Notes under the pieces: model-generated
The model's input: only the letters and a program-made list of their open reading frames with translations
What the model was told of the DNA's origin: nothing
Databases searched by the model: none
Shown: positions 56,844 to 63,881 of the stretch, piece after piece
Layout of the letters: each line of letters begins with the position of its first letter
Position numbering within the stretch: position 1 is the first letter of the stretch
Position numbers and translations under genes: made by a program
From: Agrobacterium tumefaciens
GTDB lineage: Bacteria > Pseudomonadota > Alphaproteobacteria > Rhizobiales > Rhizobiaceae
NCBI RefSeq assembly: GCF_005221385.1
Contig: NZ_CP039903.1
Coordinates: 62,001 to 126,000 of the forward strand
Length of the DNA stretch: 64,000 nt
Reading direction: 5' to 3'

Positions 56844-56925
56844 GGATAAGCTTGCCATACTGCCGTTATCGGCTTGCGTCAATGCTTTCCTTTTGGTTTT
56901 GTCGCCGTAAAAAGGAATGATGATC

Positions 56926-58023
56926 ATGACGAGAACCACGGGCATTTTGGCGGATGGCGCTATCCGGGCGCTGTTTGCAGGCGGCAAGCTGAAGAGCGAG
57001 GCCGAGCTCGATGTTGACCAGGTGCAGCCCGCCAGCCTCGATTTGCGGCTGGGCTCAAAAGCCTATCGCGTTCGTGCCAGCTTCATGCCCGGCCCCGGAA
57101 CCCGCGTCATCGACAAGCTCAATCGCTTCAGCCTGCACGAGGTTGACCTCTCTGAGGGCGCCGTGCTGGAAACCGGTTGCGTTTATATCGTTCCGCTGAT
57201 GGAAAGCCTGGAACTGCCGGCGGAGATGTCGGCTTCGGCCAATCCCAAAAGCTCGACCGGTCGCCTTGATATTTTCACCCGCGTGATGACCGACAACGCG
57301 CAGGAATTCGACAAGATCCCGGCGGGATATACCGGCCCGCTTTATCTGGAAATCAGCCCGCGCACCTTCCCGGTGGTGGTTCGCCGCGGCTCGCGCCTGT
57401 CGCAGATCCGCTTCCGCATCGGCCATTCGCTGCTCAACGAAAGCGAGCTTTTGAAGCTGCACGAAACGGAAACGCTGGTTGCCAGCGAAACCCCCAACGT
57501 GACGGGCGGCGGCATCGCGCTTTCGATCGACCTCAAAGGTTTCGGCGATAATGGCCTGATCGGTTATCGCGGCAAACACCACACGGCTGTGGTGGATGTC
57601 GACAAGAAGGCCCAGCACGACGTTCTCGATTTCTGGGAGCCGCTTCATGCGCGCGGCCGCGCCGAGCTGATCCTTGATCCCGATGAGTTCTATATTCTCG
57701 TCTCACGCGAAGCCGTGCACGTACCGCCGCTTTACGCCGCCGAAATGACGCCTTTCGACCCGCTGGTGGGCGAATTCCGGGTCCACTACGCCGGCTTCTT
57801 CGACCCAGGCTTCGGCCATGCGCAGGCCGGCGGAACCGGCAGCCGCGCGGTGCTGGAAGTGCGCAGCCATGAGGTGCCCTTCATCCTCGAACACGGCCAG
57901 ATCGTTGGCCGCTTGGTATATGAACACATGCTGCAGAAACCGGAAGGCCTCTACGGCACGGGTCTTGGATCCAATTATCAGGCTCAGGGCCTGAAACTCT
58001 CCAAGCATTTCCGCGTGGAATAA
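56926..58023 (+). CDS. dcd: 2'-Deoxycytidine 5'-triphosphate deaminase, alphaproteobacterial long form
   Basis: 365 aa, about twice the length of E. coli Dcd, as expected for the two-domain alphaproteobacterial family. It converts dCTP to dUTP. Each half shows the jelly-roll pattern, for example PASLDLRLGSKAYRV and the substrate-binding SSTGRLDIFTRVM in the first and VPPLYAAEMTPFDP in the second. ATG 56926 lies 9 bases after AAAGGA, so it is preferred over ATG 56917 and 56920. Confidence 0.9.
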   Translation: MTRTTGILADGAIRALFAGGKLKSEAELDVDQVQPASLDLRLGSKAYRVRASFMPGPGTRVIDKLNRFSLHEVDLSEGAVLETGCVYIVPLMESLELPAEMSASANPKSSTGRLDIFTRVMTDNAQEFDKIPAGYTGPLYLEISPRTFPVVVRRGSRLSQIRFRIGHSLLNESELLKLHETETLVASETPNVTGGGIALSIDLKGFGDNGLIGYRGKHHTAVVDVDKKAQHDVLDFWEPLHARGRAELILDPDEFYILVSREAVHVPPLYAAEMTPFDPLVGEFRVHYAGFFDPGFGHAQAGGTGSRAVLEVRSHEVPFILEHGQIVGRLVYEHMLQKPEGLYGTGLGSNYQAQGLKLSKHFRVE

Positions 58024-58080: not shown

Positions 58081-58154
58081 GCGGGTGTAGCTCAATGGTA
58101 GAGCAGCAGCTTCCCAAGCTGAATACGAGGGTTCGATTCCCTTCACCCGCTCCA
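58081..58154 (+). tRNA. tRNA-Gly(CCC)
   Basis: A 74-nt cloverleaf: GCGGGTG/CACCCGC acceptor, anticodon loop TTCCCAA (anticodon CCC), T-loop TTCGATT and an encoded CCA. An integrase remnant and a T6SS module lie just downstream, so its 3' end is a likely integration site. Confidence 0.97.
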
Positions 58155-58187
58155 GCGACCTTTCCAACAAGACCGATGACGTCCACG

Positions 58188-58211
58188 AAACGCTGAATTT
58201 TCAGCGTTTTT
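58188..58211 (+). terminator. Terminator after tRNA-Gly
   Basis: 9-bp stem AAACGCTGA / TCAGCGTTT with an ATTT loop and T tail. Confidence 0.82.
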
Positions 58212-58317
58212 GCCTCACGCGTGCGTAAGGTCGTGCAACGGTATGCAGTGACATCCAGCAATTTTGTCGGTAAAAATTACGGTATTCATCAACGTGGCGG
58301 GAAGCCGATACCGTAAA

Positions 58318-58498
58318 ATGGCCCTGACAGACATTCAGGTAGAACGCCAAAGCCGATAGCAAGCCGCGCAAGCTGTCTGATAAGAAGGGGCTTTACCTCT
58401 ACATTTCGGTTGCCGGTGGCAAGTCCTGGCGGTTCGACTATGATTTTTTCGGTAAGCGAAAAACACTGACGATTGGGGTATACCCTAATGTTCGGCAA
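58318..58498 (+). pseudogene. Frameshifted remnant of a DUF4102 tyrosine integrase
   Basis: ATG 58318 begins MALTDIQV, then the frame breaks near 58340. In the next frame the typical arm-binding domain continues: KLSDKKGLYLYISVAGGKSW and RKTLTIGVYPNV. Similarity ends near 58,490 and the catalytic domain is absent. Lying just after the tRNA-Gly, it marks an old tRNA-targeted insertion, now unable to excise by its own enzyme. Confidence 0.8.
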
Positions 58499-58542
58499 TT
58501 CGGCGACCCGAACTTTTACTGGGCGCTGCGAGCATATCAGCT

Positions 58543-58845
58543 CTATTCAAAAGTTAGCCACGGAACACCTTGAACGAGCCTACCACCATGCGCGCAGCTG
58601 TCGCCTAGGCGGGATATCTGTTTCCCATTAATACTTGCAACGGACGAGCCTGCGATGATCTTGTCATTAGTAGGCACGCCTGCGCACAGACATGTGTCAC
58701 CAACTGTGGCGATTGGTACACCTTCGACGTTCACAAAACTCTGCTGCGTCGAATTTACCGGTCCCCCAATATGAGGTTTAGGACCGGGGTCGATCATAGG
58801 GCATATATGCATATGGCCTTTTAAACTGACCGGGCGTCCAACCAT
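58543..58845 (-). CDS. PAAR-domain spike-tip protein
   Basis: 100 aa. It has the PAAR-like pattern HMHICPMIDPGPKPHIGGPV and repeats GDTCLCAG and GDSCAHGG, whose His/Cys residues coordinate zinc. It sharpens the VgrG tip of the type VI secretion system. AAAGGAAAG precedes ATG 58845. It is the last gene of the vgrG-adaptor-toxin-immunity-PAAR set. Confidence 0.92.
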   Translation of the reverse strand: MVGRPVSLKGHMHICPMIDPGPKPHIGGPVNSTQQSFVNVEGVPIATVGDTCLCAGVPTNDKIIAGSSVASINGKQISRLGDSCAHGGRLVQGVPWLTFE

Positions 58846-58918
58846 TCAACTTTCCTTTTTTCGGACAACCTTACTATGGATTGGCAATTAAGCGTTGCGA
58901 GTGAAGATGACCAAACAA

Positions 58919-59593
58919 CTAATTACCGATTCTGCGCACGTGTCGGGGTGGGAAGGGTGTCATATCAACCAGTTGGAAATCATGCGCCTGTGCAAGTATG
59001 CTCATATGTGGAAAGGCGTCATATACGATCAAGCTGTTGGCGTTTCTGGGGCCACCAAAGGCAAGGATGGGCTTGAATCCGTAGATTTGCCCAGCTCCAA
59101 GATCACCAAGTTTCGATTGTGCCACCTTAAATAATGGTCTGCCGTTTTCGTCTGGCATGTCGTATGAGTCATCGTCAACCATCAGTAAACTCGTTAAAAT
59201 CGTCAAGTTTGGGTCGACCCCCTGTTTAGGAGAGGTTAGCCAGCGGCAAGACACCTGACTTTCCGGTAGAGTGACATAAACACTCCGATGAGTTTCGTTC
59301 CAAGCGAGTATTTCCCCGAAGGCGCTGAAGCCTATGGCGTGTGTTTTCTCAGGATCTAAATCAGGATCTCCTAAAAGGACTTGGTCGAGAATAGGTCGAT
59401 ACTTGTCGGGATCGCAAAGTTGAAAGTAACCGCTCCAAAAAACCCCAAGGCCAAGCTCGTCCCAAACTTTGAAGATAGATTCTGGAAGGCGGCCCATGTA
59501 CTTTTCGCTGTCAACCGGGCCACGCCCCTTTTCCAGCTGACCCGCAGTCAATTTGGTAAGAACAGCTTCAAGCCTAGTTTGATATGAAACCAT
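58919..59593 (-). CDS. tdi: Immunity protein to the Tde-type toxin (GAD-like plus DUF1851)
   Basis: 224 aa. The N-terminal GAD-like domain shows RLPESIFKVWDELGLGVFWSGYF and DPDKYRPIL, and the C-terminal DUF1851 part shows PLFKVAQSKLGDLG and GFKPILAFGG. This two-domain set is that of Tdi proteins, which block Tde DNases in the cytoplasm. AAGGTGATC precedes ATG 59593; an ATG at 59608 overlaps that site. It starts 21 bases after the toxin gene, ensuring co-expression. Confidence 0.88.
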   Translation of the reverse strand: MVSYQTRLEAVLTKLTAGQLEKGRGPVDSEKYMGRLPESIFKVWDELGLGVFWSGYFQLCDPDKYRPILDQVLLGDPDLDPEKTHAIGFSAFGEILAWNETHRSVYVTLPESQVSCRWLTSPKQGVDPNLTILTSLLMVDDDSYDMPDENGRPLFKVAQSKLGDLGAGQIYGFKPILAFGGPRNANSLIVYDAFPHMSILAQAHDFQLVDMTPFPPRHVRRIGN

Positions 59594-59614
59594 ATGATCA
59601 CCTTTCAAATTTGC

Positions 59615-60475
59615 TCAGGACGTTGGAATATTTGACTGACCTTGACCTTGTCCCGAACCCGCCCCAATGCTGCCCCCTGATGTTGCATTGTCGGGGTCGG
59701 AAGCGCCAGCCTCGTCACACAATTTAAGTTTGGTATTACTTTTTTCGCCCTTTTGTCGTGCCTTTTCTGCGTGTTCCTTTAATTGTTGCAGTCGTGTTTT
59801 TCCGCTGTCTCCCGCCTTGGACCACTGAGAACCTATAGACCTGTTCGCCGACCTCGGTGCTAACCCACCGTCTTTTGTTGAAAACTCCCCTGTACCACCG
59901 GCGGAAAGATCAGGCGTATGGATCACATCCATAGTTTTGAGCTCTTTCTGAGCAGCACTCTTAGCTGCTGATTCAGTGAGTTCTCCGTTACTCTCCATAA
60001 GGTCTTCTATCTTGTTGCGCAGCCACTTGCTTCGGGCTGCCGCACGATCAGCAGCATCTGTCGCGCCTCTACCGATCTTTTCGTAAGTGTCCATGTTTTT
60101 GATAAGCTGGTCGGGCGGAATATTGTTTATTGCATCTTGCTGTTCTTCGAGTTGTCTCTTGAATTCTTTGATCTCATCAGGCGTCGAGCCTTTTGGAGGT
60201 TTGAAGCAATCGATTTCCCCACAATCAACGCAAGGCTTGGCCTGTTCGCTCTCCTTGGTCTTGGCGTCAGCGTCTACATTCGCACCTTCCATATAAGATG
60301 CGATTGCGGAGGCAGCCGCTCTACCCGCCATAGCGCCGACTTGTCCACCTATCCATGCTCCAACCGCTGTACCTCCAGGCCCAGCGAGGCTGCCAGCCAA
60401 GCCTCCAATAACACGGCCAAGCCAACCTCCTGCGATAGCACCGCCCGCCCCGGCGACTGTTGTCGTCGCACTCAT
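59615..60475 (-). CDS. tde: Tde-type T6SS DNase effector (Ntox15/HxxD)
   Basis: 286 aa. The first 65 residues are glycine-rich with many GxxxG steps (AGGAIAGGWLGRVIGGLAGS), like the N-terminal glycine zipper of Tde1. A Cys cluster (CVDCGEIDC) and a charged helical region follow. The C-terminal toxin domain has H186-T-P-D189 in DVIHTPDLSAGG, then NRSIGSQW, the pattern of the type 15 polymorphic toxin domain. It should degrade DNA in rival cells. The start overlaps the DUF4123 stop (ATGA). Composition is more AT-rich than vgrG. Confidence 0.87.
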   Translation of the reverse strand: MSATTTVAGAGGAIAGGWLGRVIGGLAGSLAGPGGTAVGAWIGGQVGAMAGRAAASAIASYMEGANVDADAKTKESEQAKPCVDCGEIDCFKPPKGSTPDEIKEFKRQLEEQQDAINNIPPDQLIKNMDTYEKIGRGATDAADRAAARSKWLRNKIEDLMESNGELTESAAKSAAQKELKTMDVIHTPDLSAGGTGEFSTKDGGLAPRSANRSIGSQWSKAGDSGKTRLQQLKEHAEKARQKGEKSNTKLKLCDEAGASDPDNATSGGSIGAGSGQGQGQSNIPTS

Positions 60476-61428
60476 GCAGGCACTCCAGATGCTGACGGAT
60501 TAGAACGCAAGGCATCGACGGTGTGGTCAATCAGGGATTTAACCCTATTATCGGGTGTGTCGCCGCCATCGCCAACATAGTTTCGCACCTCCGGAGCATC
60601 TGCCGCCTTTCCATCGGACATTATCATGACGTAAGCCCAGCGAGCGCGACCGCGCTCCGTCTTGATACCAAGCTCATCGGCAGATTTTTCGCTGGCCAAG
60701 GTGGCACCCCAAATGAAGTTATCGTCGACGCCAGAAAAATACGGCGGAGTATTCGCTTTCAGGAACCGGGCTATTCGGAGTCGAGAGGAATGAAGCATGG
60801 CTGCTTTCAGCTTTTCAATTTGGTCCCGCTCAATTCGCAACGGGCCGGGCGGAGTAGCAGGCAGGTCTGCCGGCGCCTTTACTCTCTTAACCCCACCGTA
60901 GTCCGGTGCGTTGAAAACGACGCAGTCTGCAGGGCCCAAGAAGCGGGCAATCTGCGGCCTTGTCAGAATTGGAAGAAGAGCGCCGAGGACATTAGGGTCC
61001 CAATGTCGAAACAATACGCGTTCATACTGGGGTGAACTCGAAGCTGGCAGATTGCTACTTGTCTGCTCCAGTGGGATCATAACCTCGTTAATAGTCCTCA
61101 GGTGACGGTAAAGATCATCGGTTCCAGACGGACAGGACCAATAGACAGCGCAAGCATTTTTTGCGTCTAGCCAGCCTATATAAGAGCGCACGGGGATAGC
61201 CGAGAGATCGACTAACCATGGTCCTGACAAACGAAAATCGGCGGAAGCACCTTCAAGAAACAATGACCGGGCACTGATACCTTCTTCCTGAAGGATGCGC
61301 GGAAGATTATCAAATGCACCCCCATCTAAAACGACGGACACCTGTCCCGTCATGGCCTCTACGGCTTGTCTTGTAAGCTCGGCGGTCTCGTTCGGATTTG
61401 GCAGATCAATTATGGGTGTGTCGTTCAT
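60472..61428 (-). CDS. tap: DUF4123 effector adaptor/chaperone (Tap/Tec type)
   Basis: 318 aa. The DUF4123 domain (about residues 35-160) has the family pattern of a YIGWLDAKNACAVYWSCPSG segment and LFRHWDPNVLGALLPILTRPQ with the following FLGPAD. Such proteins load effectors onto VgrG. ATG 61428 lies two bases after the vgrG stop. Its stop overlaps the toxin start, so adaptor and toxin are made together. Confidence 0.86.
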   Translation of the reverse strand: MNDTPIIDLPNPNETAELTRQAVEAMTGQVSVVLDGGAFDNLPRILQEEGISARSLFLEGASADFRLSGPWLVDLSAIPVRSYIGWLDAKNACAVYWSCPSGTDDLYRHLRTINEVMIPLEQTSSNLPASSSPQYERVLFRHWDPNVLGALLPILTRPQIARFLGPADCVVFNAPDYGGVKRVKAPADLPATPPGPLRIERDQIEKLKAAMLHSSRLRIARFLKANTPPYFSGVDDNFIWGATLASEKSADELGIKTERGRARWAYVMIMSDGKAADAPEVRNYVGDGGDTPDNRVKSLIDHTVDALRSNPSASGVPA

Positions 61429-61430
61429 AA

Positions 61431-63881
61431 TCAAATCCTGACAAACGGGGTGGAATTCTTCGACATCGACTTCAAGCAAGAGCCACTTTCACCGGGCCCA
61501 CCTTTCTTGAAGTTAATCTGGTTACCTTCGATATCGATCTTCAGGGCAAAGAGCTTGATGCCGCTTTTTGTCAGGGAAATGTATCCGCCGGGTGTCGAAA
61601 GGCGAATTTCATCGTCGCCGAATATCTCCCAGACCTTCGCCTCGCCGTGGTATTTCTCTTCGGAGACGAGATTGTAGAGCTTGCCGACATTGACGGTGAT
61701 CTTCTCACCGACACGCGTGTATTGGCCCGTACCGATCTCGACGAATTGCTCTTTGCCGATGGTCAGGTTCTGCTGTTTTCCGACCTGTCGGACTTCCGTC
61801 TGGCCAATATTGGTAACCTTGCTGACCCCGACCTGCTCGGCTTTTGCCACACCTACGGATGTGGACTGAAACGCCCCGATGATCGTGTTCATGATGCCGG
61901 GCAGCGGAAAGAGCCCCGAGGCATCGGAACCGACGCCCGAGCCGGAGCCGGCAAGCGCCGTGCCTGCATCTGCCCGCGGACTTGGGCCGGAGACCACACC
62001 ATCCCGCGACGACATGCCGCCAGCACCGAGAAAGCCAAGCGCCGATGAGGCAAGTGTCGTAGCAAAGGCAGCGACACCCGGGCCACCTCCACCGGCGATC
62101 TGTGCTGCCTGACTGAGCAACCCCGCCGTCTGTCCGGAGAGCGCCTGCACGCCCGCCATGGCCATCATCGCCATCGGCCCCGTGCCGCCAACGACGGTGT
62201 TCACCGAGCCGCCGATCTCGTGTTTCTGGTTGCCGGAAACCTCCACCGCGCGGTTGCCGCCGACCGAGGCAACCTCGTGCCGGTCAATACGCTTGGTCCG
62301 GTCATTCAGAACCCGCGTCGTCTGGTCCTTCTGGGCGTGGAAGAACTGGTTCTCCTTGCCGGCCTCGTCCTCGAAGGTGATTTCGTTGAAGCCATCACCC
62401 TTGTGGCTGTTGGAACGCAGTACCATGCGCGTCTTGTTGGCGGGCAGGTCGTAAGGAACGGAATTGGCAGGATTGTTGACCACGCCGATGACCAGCGGCT
62501 TGTCCGGATCGCCATCGACAAAGGCGACCATCACTTCCATGCCGATGCGCGGGATGACCTGCGCGCCCCACGTCCCGCCGCCCCATGCCTGGCTGACGCG
62601 CACCCAGCACGTATCGGTTCCATCCTTCTTCGCCTTGCGGTCCCACGGGAACCACAGCTTGATGCGGCCATATTGATCCGGATGGATTTCCTCGCCTTCA
62701 GGACCGGCGACGATCGCCACCTGCGTACCCTCGATGCGCGGCCGCTTCGTCGCACGGTGCGGCGTCAGCGGCACGCGTGCCGGGATCGCCTCGAAGTGAT
62801 TGCGATATTCCGGCTCGTTGCTGTTTGTCTCATAGGAGAGATCCACAATACTGTGGCTTGCCCTGATGATCACATGTTCTTCATAGGCATGTTCCGGATG
62901 CGCAACCTCGTAAGGCGTAAAGCGGCGGCCGGCTTCCAGGATGCGCGTGGTCGAAGACCCGAATACCCGGTCATGATCGGCCTCGATGGATTGGGTTCTG
63001 AGTTTCTGCGCCCGCTCGGCCTCTTCAACCGTCTTGATGCGGGCCGGATATTCATAAAGCTCGCGTTTCGTCGCATCCGGCATCTGCACCAGTGAGGGCG
63101 TCATGGTGCCAGGCACCATGCCCGGTGTCTCGAAATTCCAGTCCGCACCCGCGCGCTGGCCCGACACATAGGAAAAACGCCGCGCCCAGTCGCTAATGTG
63201 GTTGCGATCCGACGACCCCTGCGCCAGACGCACCGTCCCCTCACCCTGGGCGGCCGGCGACGGCCCAAGCCAGCCGCTGGCGCTATCGGCCACATGCAGC
63301 TTGTGGGAACCGTCCTCATGGGCAAACCAGTAGAACAGCCCGTCCTCTTCGAAACGCCGGGTGAGATAGTCCAGATCGGTCTCGTTAAACTGCACACTGT
63401 AATGCTGCGCCGGCGGCGGCGAGATGATGCCCGATGTATCGGGGGCGGGAATGCCGTGTTCGGAAAACAGCGTCTCGACGATCTCGACCGCCGTCTTGTC
63501 CATCCAGATACGGCAATCCGAGCGGCGTGACAGAAGCCACATCTGCGGCCGCAGCGTCAGCGCATAGGAGCGCATGCCGCGGGTGATCGGCGGACCTTCG
63601 TGCAATTCCGTCACCAGACCATTGAACGGCCGGCGAACACCGCCACCGTCGCCATCGCCCTGGCTGATCTCGACCGACACATCGACAAGCCGGCCAATCA
63701 GCTCCTCGGGCTTGACCGCTTCCTTCTTGGCCCGCAGGGTCAGGTGGATTTCGAAGAGCCGTGATACGCCCTCGTCAACCGCAAGTCGTTCAGGAAGAAG
63801 CTGGTCTTCCCCTAGAGGAGACTTGACCTTGAGCACGCGGCTCGCCTGAACGAAATCGGAAAAAGAAGACTGATCATTCAT
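61431..63881 (-). CDS. vgrG: T6SS spike protein VgrG
   Basis: 816 aa. The gp27-like part covers about residues 1-380 (FNETDLDYLTRRFEEDGLFY). The gp5 OB-fold contains GEEIHPDQYGRIKLWFPWDR and WVRVSQAWGG. A long beta-helical tail with DUF2345-like repeats ends in an irregular stretch after KKGGPGESGSC. That tail usually decides which adaptor and effector are loaded. VgrG trimers puncture target cells with PAAR at the tip. No other T6SS structural genes are in the window, so this is probably an auxiliary vgrG module using an apparatus encoded elsewhere. Confidence 0.95.
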   Translation of the reverse strand: MNDQSSFSDFVQASRVLKVKSPLGEDQLLPERLAVDEGVSRLFEIHLTLRAKKEAVKPEELIGRLVDVSVEISQGDGDGGGVRRPFNGLVTELHEGPPITRGMRSYALTLRPQMWLLSRRSDCRIWMDKTAVEIVETLFSEHGIPAPDTSGIISPPPAQHYSVQFNETDLDYLTRRFEEDGLFYWFAHEDGSHKLHVADSASGWLGPSPAAQGEGTVRLAQGSSDRNHISDWARRFSYVSGQRAGADWNFETPGMVPGTMTPSLVQMPDATKRELYEYPARIKTVEEAERAQKLRTQSIEADHDRVFGSSTTRILEAGRRFTPYEVAHPEHAYEEHVIIRASHSIVDLSYETNSNEPEYRNHFEAIPARVPLTPHRATKRPRIEGTQVAIVAGPEGEEIHPDQYGRIKLWFPWDRKAKKDGTDTCWVRVSQAWGGGTWGAQVIPRIGMEVMVAFVDGDPDKPLVIGVVNNPANSVPYDLPANKTRMVLRSNSHKGDGFNEITFEDEAGKENQFFHAQKDQTTRVLNDRTKRIDRHEVASVGGNRAVEVSGNQKHEIGGSVNTVVGGTGPMAMMAMAGVQALSGQTAGLLSQAAQIAGGGGPGVAAFATTLASSALGFLGAGGMSSRDGVVSGPSPRADAGTALAGSGSGVGSDASGLFPLPGIMNTIIGAFQSTSVGVAKAEQVGVSKVTNIGQTEVRQVGKQQNLTIGKEQFVEIGTGQYTRVGEKITVNVGKLYNLVSEEKYHGEAKVWEIFGDDEIRLSTPGGYISLTKSGIKLFALKIDIEGNQINFKKGGPGESGSCLKSMSKNSTPFVRI

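What the first reader, a model, noticed from the sequence alone, without database searches (positions are those of the whole stretch)
58081..63881. Auxiliary T6SS effector module next to tRNA-Gly and an integrase remnant
Order on the minus strand is vgrG, DUF4123 adaptor, HxxD toxin, GAD/DUF1851 immunity, PAAR. This is the order known for the Agrobacterium C58 vgrG1-tde1 locus (established knowledge), but here it follows dcd and tRNA-Gly(CCC), with a dead integrase between. This suggests a whole toxin cassette arrived by tRNA-targeted transfer, then was fixed. It may give strain-specific competition.
Basis: partly seen in the sequence, partly recalled or inferred. Interest (0 to 1): 0.7.

Follow-up and report, generated by a model that had tools for sequence, protein, structure and literature searches.

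The report
T6SS toxin module in tRNA island
An Agrobacterium-type genome carries a known kind of DNA-cutting toxin module, fired at rival bacteria by a contractile injection machine, in a tRNA-gene landing site whose integration enzyme is now broken, and the module is a patchwork whose spike gene matches a second copy on the other chromosome.

Summary
Minus-strand vgrG, DUF4123 adaptor, Ntox15 (HxxD) toxin, GAD-like/Tdi1 immunity and PAAR lie between tRNA-Gly(CCC) and aqpZ, with a truncated P4-type integrase beside the tRNA (insert about 6.3 kb, 58155 to about 64459, just past the window). Of 39 genomes of the genus, this one included, six keep tRNA-Gly and aqpZ within 145 bp, and vgrG was found in the 14-20 kb read at this site only here. 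A T6SS core lies on the second replicon. So this is a new member of a known kind, an accessory Tde1-type vgrG locus, in an unusual place: the primary chromosome.

No second tRNA end (attR) was found; integrase and vgrG's companion gene are truncated at the two ends; the module is a mosaic. 1,820 bp of vgrG differ by one base from a vgrG on the second replicon, while the adaptor gene is 97.5% identical to another species'. That species, G016, carries the homologous module inside a 29-kb att-bounded element at tRNA-Arg, and its vgrG trunk is again identical (2,094 bp) to a second-replicon copy. Delivery by tRNA-targeted islands, fixation, and overwriting of the spike trunk by resident sequence fit best.

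The parts
56917..58023 (+). dcd, conserved left flank
   Evidence: Pfam DCD_N/DCD_C; matched in 39 of 39 genomes of the genus
58081..58154 (+). tRNA-Gly(CCC), insertion site; the left break of the insert is at its 3' end
   Evidence: ARAGORN; homology to empty-site relatives stops at or within 4 bases of the tRNA end
58155..58485 (.). left end of an integrative element, shared at 90-91% identity with integrase-bearing elements at the same tRNA in G001, G003, G026 (G008 82.7%)
   Evidence: blastn
58318..58492 (+). remnant of a P4-type tyrosine integrase (about 59 codons, frame broken)
   Evidence: tblastn and alignment to the gene of A. arsenijevicii; domains of that gene
58543..58845 (-). PAAR spike-tip protein
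   Evidence: PF05488
58919..59608 (-). immunity protein, Tdi1 type
   Evidence: GAD-like + T6SS_Tdi1_C
59615..60475 (-). toxin, Tde1 type: N-terminal glycine-zipper repeats, C-terminal Ntox15 with HxxD
   Evidence: PF15604; alignment with three relatives
60472..61479 (-). DUF4123 adaptor (tap1 type), 97.5% nt identical to G016; start codon as listed, a later start is possible
   Evidence: PF13503
61431..63881 (-). VgrG spike protein
   Evidence: TIGR03361
61972..63791 (-). vgrG trunk tract, 1 difference in 1,820 bp to the vgrG at C2:2052732 of the same genome
58155..64000 (.). inserted segment; it runs on to about 64459, beyond the window, where homology to empty-site relatives resumes upstream of aqpZ. 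A truncated divergent companion gene of vgrG lies at 64013-64465

Best explanation
It is an accessory T6SS locus of the known tap1/Tde1 type. The second-replicon T6SS would fire a VgrG-PAAR spike; the DUF4123 adaptor would load the toxin on it; the toxin's glycine-zipper N-terminus would help it cross the prey membrane and its Ntox15 domain would cut prey DNA; Tdi would protect the producer. The locus sits in a tRNA-Gly(CCC) landing site where elements with P4-type or phage-type integrases are found in many relatives. Here the integrase is truncated and no attR was found, so the locus is probably fixed. I infer that tRNA-targeted islands bring such loci to the primary chromosome, as seen with both ends in G016 at tRNA-Arg, and that afterwards (or during capture) the vgrG trunk is overwritten by homologous recombination with a resident vgrG. 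Shown: anatomy, empty site, broken integrase, mosaic, the att-bounded island in G016. Inferred: secretion, killing, the order of events, and that this site's own integrase brought the module.
For: Domains; HxxD and an identical 60-residue N-terminus in 4 of 4 aligned toxins; HxxD DNase and glycine-zipper roles from passages of PMC4096383 and PMC10240207. T6SS core on C2: TssB, TssC (2 matches), TssA, TssE, TssF, TssG, TssK, TssL, TssM, a ClpV-type ATPase (cut by the stretch read), FHA, TagF, Hcp. tRNA-Gly to aqpZ within 145 bp in 6 of 39 genomes; vgrG at the site in 1 of 39. Element left-end DNA beyond the tRNA is shared with G001, G003, G026 and G008 (331-342 bp) and in shorter pieces with G028 (154), G027 (121), G002 (112), G037 (70) and G011 (18). 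G016: homologous module inside a 29-kb element at tRNA-Arg(CCG) with integrase beside the tRNA and, at the far end, 47 bp equal to this genome's own tRNA-Arg 3' part. Adaptor own vs G016: dS 0.08 against 0.64 for dcd and 0.52 for vgrG.
Against: No attR here, so insertion by this integrase is not proven. The integrase remnant and the module need not have arrived together: relatives with the same left end carry CDI-like, restriction or other genes instead, and none of the other 38 sites combines that left end with vgrG in the stretch read. The closest toxin relatives after G016 (G007, G017) lie in hcp operons, not islands. The vgrG trunk and the companion gene resemble this genome's own second-replicon loci, which also fits internal copying. 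No expression or activity data.
Confidence: 0.7

Rival explanations
1. Internal origin: a resident accessory vgrG locus of the second replicon was copied into a decayed tRNA-Gly island by illegitimate recombination, and its adaptor-toxin part was later exchanged with other species.
For: vgrG trunk 1 difference in 1,820 bp to C2:2052732; companion gene up to 99% (one 200-bp window) identical to the copy at L140 on C2.
Against: Near-identity stops inside the locus on both sides: the adjoining 300 bp are 76.5% (upstream) and 68.3% (downstream) identical in gapped alignment, as expected for a conversion tract rather than a copied locus. The companion gene and the trunk match two different C2 loci best. 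In G016 the same trunk identity occurs in a locus inside an att-bounded element.
Confidence: 0.2
2. Classic case: one integrase element carried the whole cassette into tRNA-Gly, then lost integrase and attR; the vgrG identity is later gene conversion. (This is a narrower form of the best explanation.)
For: Element left end directly at the tRNA, empty site in relatives; an att-bounded element carrying a homologous module exists in G016, at tRNA-Arg.
Against: No attR. No relative shows this left end together with a T6SS module: 0 of the other 38 sites in the stretch read.
Confidence: 0.4
3. The near-100% vgrG identity between replicons is an assembly or polishing artefact.
For: Repeats of 1.5-2 kb can be homogenised by short-read polishing (general knowledge); no reads were available.
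Against: Both outer flanks of the module match the tRNA-Gly/aqpZ order of relatives, so no misjoin. The pattern recurs in a second genome (G016), and the third copy in G000 shares only shorter runs with the other two.
Confidence: 0.07

Closest known systems
Agrobacterium C58-type vgrG1-tap1-tde1-tdi1-paar (PMC4096383, passages; order read in G007)
   Same: Gene order, adaptor 97% and VgrG 97% aa identity, identical first 60 toxin residues, HxxD
   Different: There it ends the hcp operon on the second replicon; here it is alone on the primary chromosome and the hcp operon ends after the Tae4-type amidase gene. Toxin 61% aa identity, with the divergence in its C-terminal part; immunity about 40%
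Module in the tRNA-Arg(CCG) island of G016
   Same: Companion gene, VgrG 96% and adaptor 98.5% aa identity, same order, primary chromosome
   Different: Inside a 29-kb element with a full-length integrase frame and an att site at each end; toxin 74%, immunity 48% aa identity
Accessory vgrG loci of agrobacteria (PMC8546570; outline and the two results sections on effector genes and recombination read, passages elsewhere)
   Same: tap1-associated locus, recombination hot spot within vgrG
   Different: The paper puts all accessory loci of biovar 1 on the secondary chromosome; its main text never uses the words tRNA or integrase
Vibrio cholerae Aux3 (PMC7721734, passages)
   Same: T6SS effector cluster on a mobile element with a P4-type integrase; excision reduced in the form with a truncated integrase
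   Different: attL and attR retained; empty site between gcvT and thrS (no mention of tRNA in its main text); different effector (tseH, from a passage)
Rhizobium sp. K102 plasmid pRSpK102d locus (NZ_CP092437.1)
   Same: Order vgrG, DUF4123, Ntox15 toxin, GAD-like/Tdi1, PAAR
   Different: About 72% DNA identity over 76% of the query; on a 644-kb plasmid, with tssH nearby

Membership tests
tap1/Tde1-type accessory vgrG locus | VgrG (TIGR03361) followed by a DUF4123 adaptor | tested here: met
tap1/Tde1-type accessory vgrG locus | Ntox15 toxin with HxxD and N-terminal glycine-zipper repeats | tested here: met
   PF15604 1.2e-27; HTPD and GxxxG repeats seen in the alignment; motif roles from passages
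tap1/Tde1-type accessory vgrG locus | adjacent GAD-like/Tdi immunity gene | tested here: met
tap1/Tde1-type accessory vgrG locus | T6SS-dependent secretion and DNase killing | not testable with these tools
   needs bench work
T6SS-bearing genome | core apparatus encoded in the genome | tested here: met
   TssJ was not searched
tRNA-targeted integrative island | integrase next to the tRNA 3' end | tested here: met
   present only as a broken remnant
tRNA-targeted integrative island | empty site in relatives | tested here: met
   6 of 39 genomes with tRNA-Gly to aqpZ within 145 bp
tRNA-targeted integrative island | direct repeat of the tRNA 3' end at the far side (attR) | tested here: not met
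Aux3-like mobile T6SS cluster | the integrase mobilises the effector cluster itself | tested here: inconclusive
   remnant and module are adjacent here, but this left end is seen with vgrG in none of the other 38 sites as far as read

The most novel reading that the evidence does not exclude
Spike localisation: when a T6SS effector module arrives on a tRNA-targeted island, recombination with a resident vgrG overwrites its spike trunk (about 2 kb, ending near residue 636-667 of VgrG) with the host's own version and leaves the cargo-binding end, adaptor and toxin foreign. A foreign toxin is thus fitted to the host's injection machine. Seen twice, in G000 at tRNA-Gly and in G016 at tRNA-Arg; a third primary-chromosome copy (G038) does not show it.
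Probability: 0.35. Interest if true: 0.6.

Novelty: new member of a known kind. Interest (0 to 1): 0.42.

Why it matters
It ties a well-studied plant-bacterium weapon to tRNA-gene landing sites on the primary chromosome, a location that a survey of agrobacterial T6SS loci (PMC8546570) reports for biovar 3 only. It also shows one landing site holding quite different cargo in related genomes: a T6SS module, two-partner (CDI-like) exoproteins, restriction genes, prophage-like elements. The paired vgrG identities suggest a testable way by which foreign spikes become compatible with the host machine.

Tried and rejected
A family-wide search for a donor of the toxin found no close relative outside the genus: 4 of the 393 other genomes searched matched at E <= 1e-8, the best at 43% identity (seven congeners are named among those without a match, so congeners with the module were probably not drawn). 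The reciprocal test at tRNA-Arg in G000 was not informative: beyond the tRNA, G000 (20-kb stretch) and G016 (80-kb stretch) share only the 47-bp att piece at the search threshold used. Organism identity was not settled: the first 12 kb of the small replicon C4 match mercury-resistance transposon DNA of several genera. The companion gene of vgrG looked AP2-like to me; this label is from memory and Pfam gives no family for it, truncated or full length. One search used a wrong family accession (I wanted TssE) and says nothing; TssE was then found. The idea that vgrG copies within a genome are generally homogenised was not borne out: 15 of 35 copies in multi-copy genomes have their nearest relative in the same genome (45 of the 56 matches used, 11 partial or stop-bearing ones dropped). 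Ungapped flank identities (39-68%) were distorted by indels and are replaced by the gapped values. A 13-bp piece of the tRNA 3' arm occurs inverted about 58 kb downstream; wrong orientation for an attR, probably chance.
Full report
WHAT IS THERE. All five are open frames; with the starts as listed, vgrG and adaptor overlap and so do adaptor and toxin, so the block reads like one operon. The toxin's first 60 residues are identical in the four aligned sequences, and its C-terminal Ntox15 domain keeps HxxD. Passages of PMC4096383 (DNase activity needs HxxD; Tdi protects) and PMC10240207 (glycine zipper needed for translocation, N-terminus binds Tap1) supply the mechanism; nothing functional was tested here.

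THE MACHINE. The genome (G000; window = C1:62001-126000; C1 3.05 Mb, C2 2.15 Mb) encodes a T6SS on C2. The C2 hcp operon runs hcp, a small gene that I take for the Tae immunity gene, and a Tae4-type amidase gene; the next frame listed is on the other strand, and no vgrG follows. Three vgrG genes exist: this one and two on C2. There is one Ntox15 match in the genome. So spikes in this strain come from dispersed vgrG loci, one of them the module studied.

THE SITE. The set is 39 genomes of the genus, this one included; at each, up to 20 kb from dcd was read, less (13.7-15.9 kb) where a contig ended or began: G003, G029, G031 (19.1 kb in G000). tRNA-Gly(CCC) follows dcd in 39 of 39, although dcd itself is matched in three pieces in G013. 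Homology to empty-site relatives stops at the tRNA 3' end and resumes upstream of aqpZ, so the insert here is about 6,305 bp. aqpZ lies within 145 bp of the tRNA in 6 of 39 (G012, G014, G016, G020, G033, G034). VgrG matches at the site in 1 of 39, this genome; in 14 of the 39 no far-flank gene (aqpZ, glycosyltransferase, binding protein) was reached, so those sites are only partly seen. In 80 named loci with at most 10 kb of downstream DNA, several cut short by contig ends, none showed the module.

OTHER OCCUPANTS. TPS-domain (CDI-like) exoproteins in 4 of 39 (G001, G003, G011, G027). A phage-type integrase relative in 9 of 39, one of them a partial match; in G006 it comes with a terminase large subunit, whose relatives cluster in four genomes, so at least that one is prophage-like. 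Methylase or GmrSD restriction genes beside a P4-type integrase in G008 and G026. An ALTTAQ-repeat protein in G027 and G037, a catalase gene in G028. Several other sites were not identified.

FIXATION. Beyond the tRNA, own DNA shares the left end of the P4-type element with G001, G003, G026 (90-91%) and G008 (82.7%) for 331-342 bp, and for 154, 121, 112, 70 and 18 bp with G028, G027, G002, G037 and G011. I read this as repeated erosion of the integrase end. Own copy: integrase cut after about 59 codons, frame broken. On the right, the companion gene of vgrG is 150 codons here against 313 in the C2 locus L140. No attR was found; attR-like repeats were found in 2 of 39 sites, G027 and G032.

MOSAIC. 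Sliding-window identity splits the module. Trunk of vgrG: 1 difference in 1,820 bp to C2:2052732 of the same genome, but 88.3% to G016 over the first 2 kb and 89.3% to C58-like G007 over the gene. Next to the tract, identity to the C2 copy falls to 76.5% upstream and 68.3% downstream (300 bp each). Adaptor: 97.5% nt to G016, dS 0.08, whereas dcd between the same genomes has dS 0.64 and vgrG 0.52. Toxin C-terminus, immunity and PAAR: strongly diverged. Thus adaptor and toxin N-terminus seem to have moved between species recently, while the trunk is of local type.

A SECOND CASE. G016 has the homologous module, with companion gene, in a 29-kb element at tRNA-Arg(CCG): integrase beside the tRNA, a serine recombinase, a flagellin gene. 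At its far end lie 47 bp identical to the tRNA-Arg 3' part of G000; the tRNA of G016 itself has a changed 3' arm, as when an element supplies a new one, so the two ends are an imperfect repeat. Its vgrG shares 2,094 identical bp with a C2 vgrG of G016; flanks fall to 80.6% and 47.6%, and non-homologous DNA follows until a related PAAR gene. Among 28 within-genome pairs two have exact runs above 1,000 bp, these two; among 962 between-genome pairs the longest is 336 bp, between G033 and G034. The counter-example is G038, whose primary-chromosome vgrG is only 81.8% identical to its other copy. Of the other toxin relatives, G007 and G017 have theirs in hcp operons; G030 and G004 match only the N-terminus and show no tRNA in the 19-20 kb read.

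WHAT IS KNOWN. Wu et al. 2021 (PMC8546570; sections on effector genes and on recombination read, passages elsewhere) describe such loci, a recombination hot spot inside vgrG, and accessory loci of biovar 1 only on the secondary chromosome. I infer from dcd and T6SS similarity to G007 that G000 and G016 are near biovar 1; they are unnamed. Santoriello et al. 2020 (PMC7721734, passages) give the closest precedent, Aux3 with a truncated integrase. PMC5361080 (passages) mentions a V. cholerae T6SS cluster on a genomic island and mosaic vgrG clusters. My searches for vgrG with gene conversion (3 papers), T6SS with auxiliary, integrase, tRNA, genomic island and vgrG (5), Agrobacterium with tRNA-Gly, integrase and genomic island (5) and CDI with Agrobacterium (15 of 49 listed) showed nothing about this site in titles and abstract openings; of those papers I saw passages only of PMC5361080.

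VERDICT. A real, intact-looking, ordinary type of weapon in an interesting place, with a history more tangled than a single arrival. The vgrG-trunk pattern is the part worth following.

Noticed in passing
L010:11346-21104 (A. arsenijevicii), L011:11431-21097 (UMA610), L112, L105: The same tRNA-Gly(CCC) site carries two-partner secretion (CDI-like) exoprotein genes with varied C-termini, in two cases next to a P4-type integrase gene.
   Followed up: partly
L009:1177-2664: The hcp operon of this genome ends after the Tae4-type amidase gene and has no vgrG, unlike the C58-like operon.
   Followed up: partly
L107:1835-6709 and L105:14252-18763: Large ALTTAQ-repeat proteins (1,624 and 1,503 aa) sit at the tRNA-Gly site of G037 and G027; function unknown to me.
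   Followed up: no
L140:7851-8792 and L004:8013-8465: A divergent gene without a Pfam family accompanies several accessory vgrG genes; the copy beside this module is truncated.
   Followed up: partly
L145:6538-8513 (G004): A vgrG with an inverted middle segment.
   Followed up: no
L154 (first 12 kb of G000 C4): Small replicon carries DNA nearly identical to mercury-resistance transposon regions of several genera.
   Followed up: no
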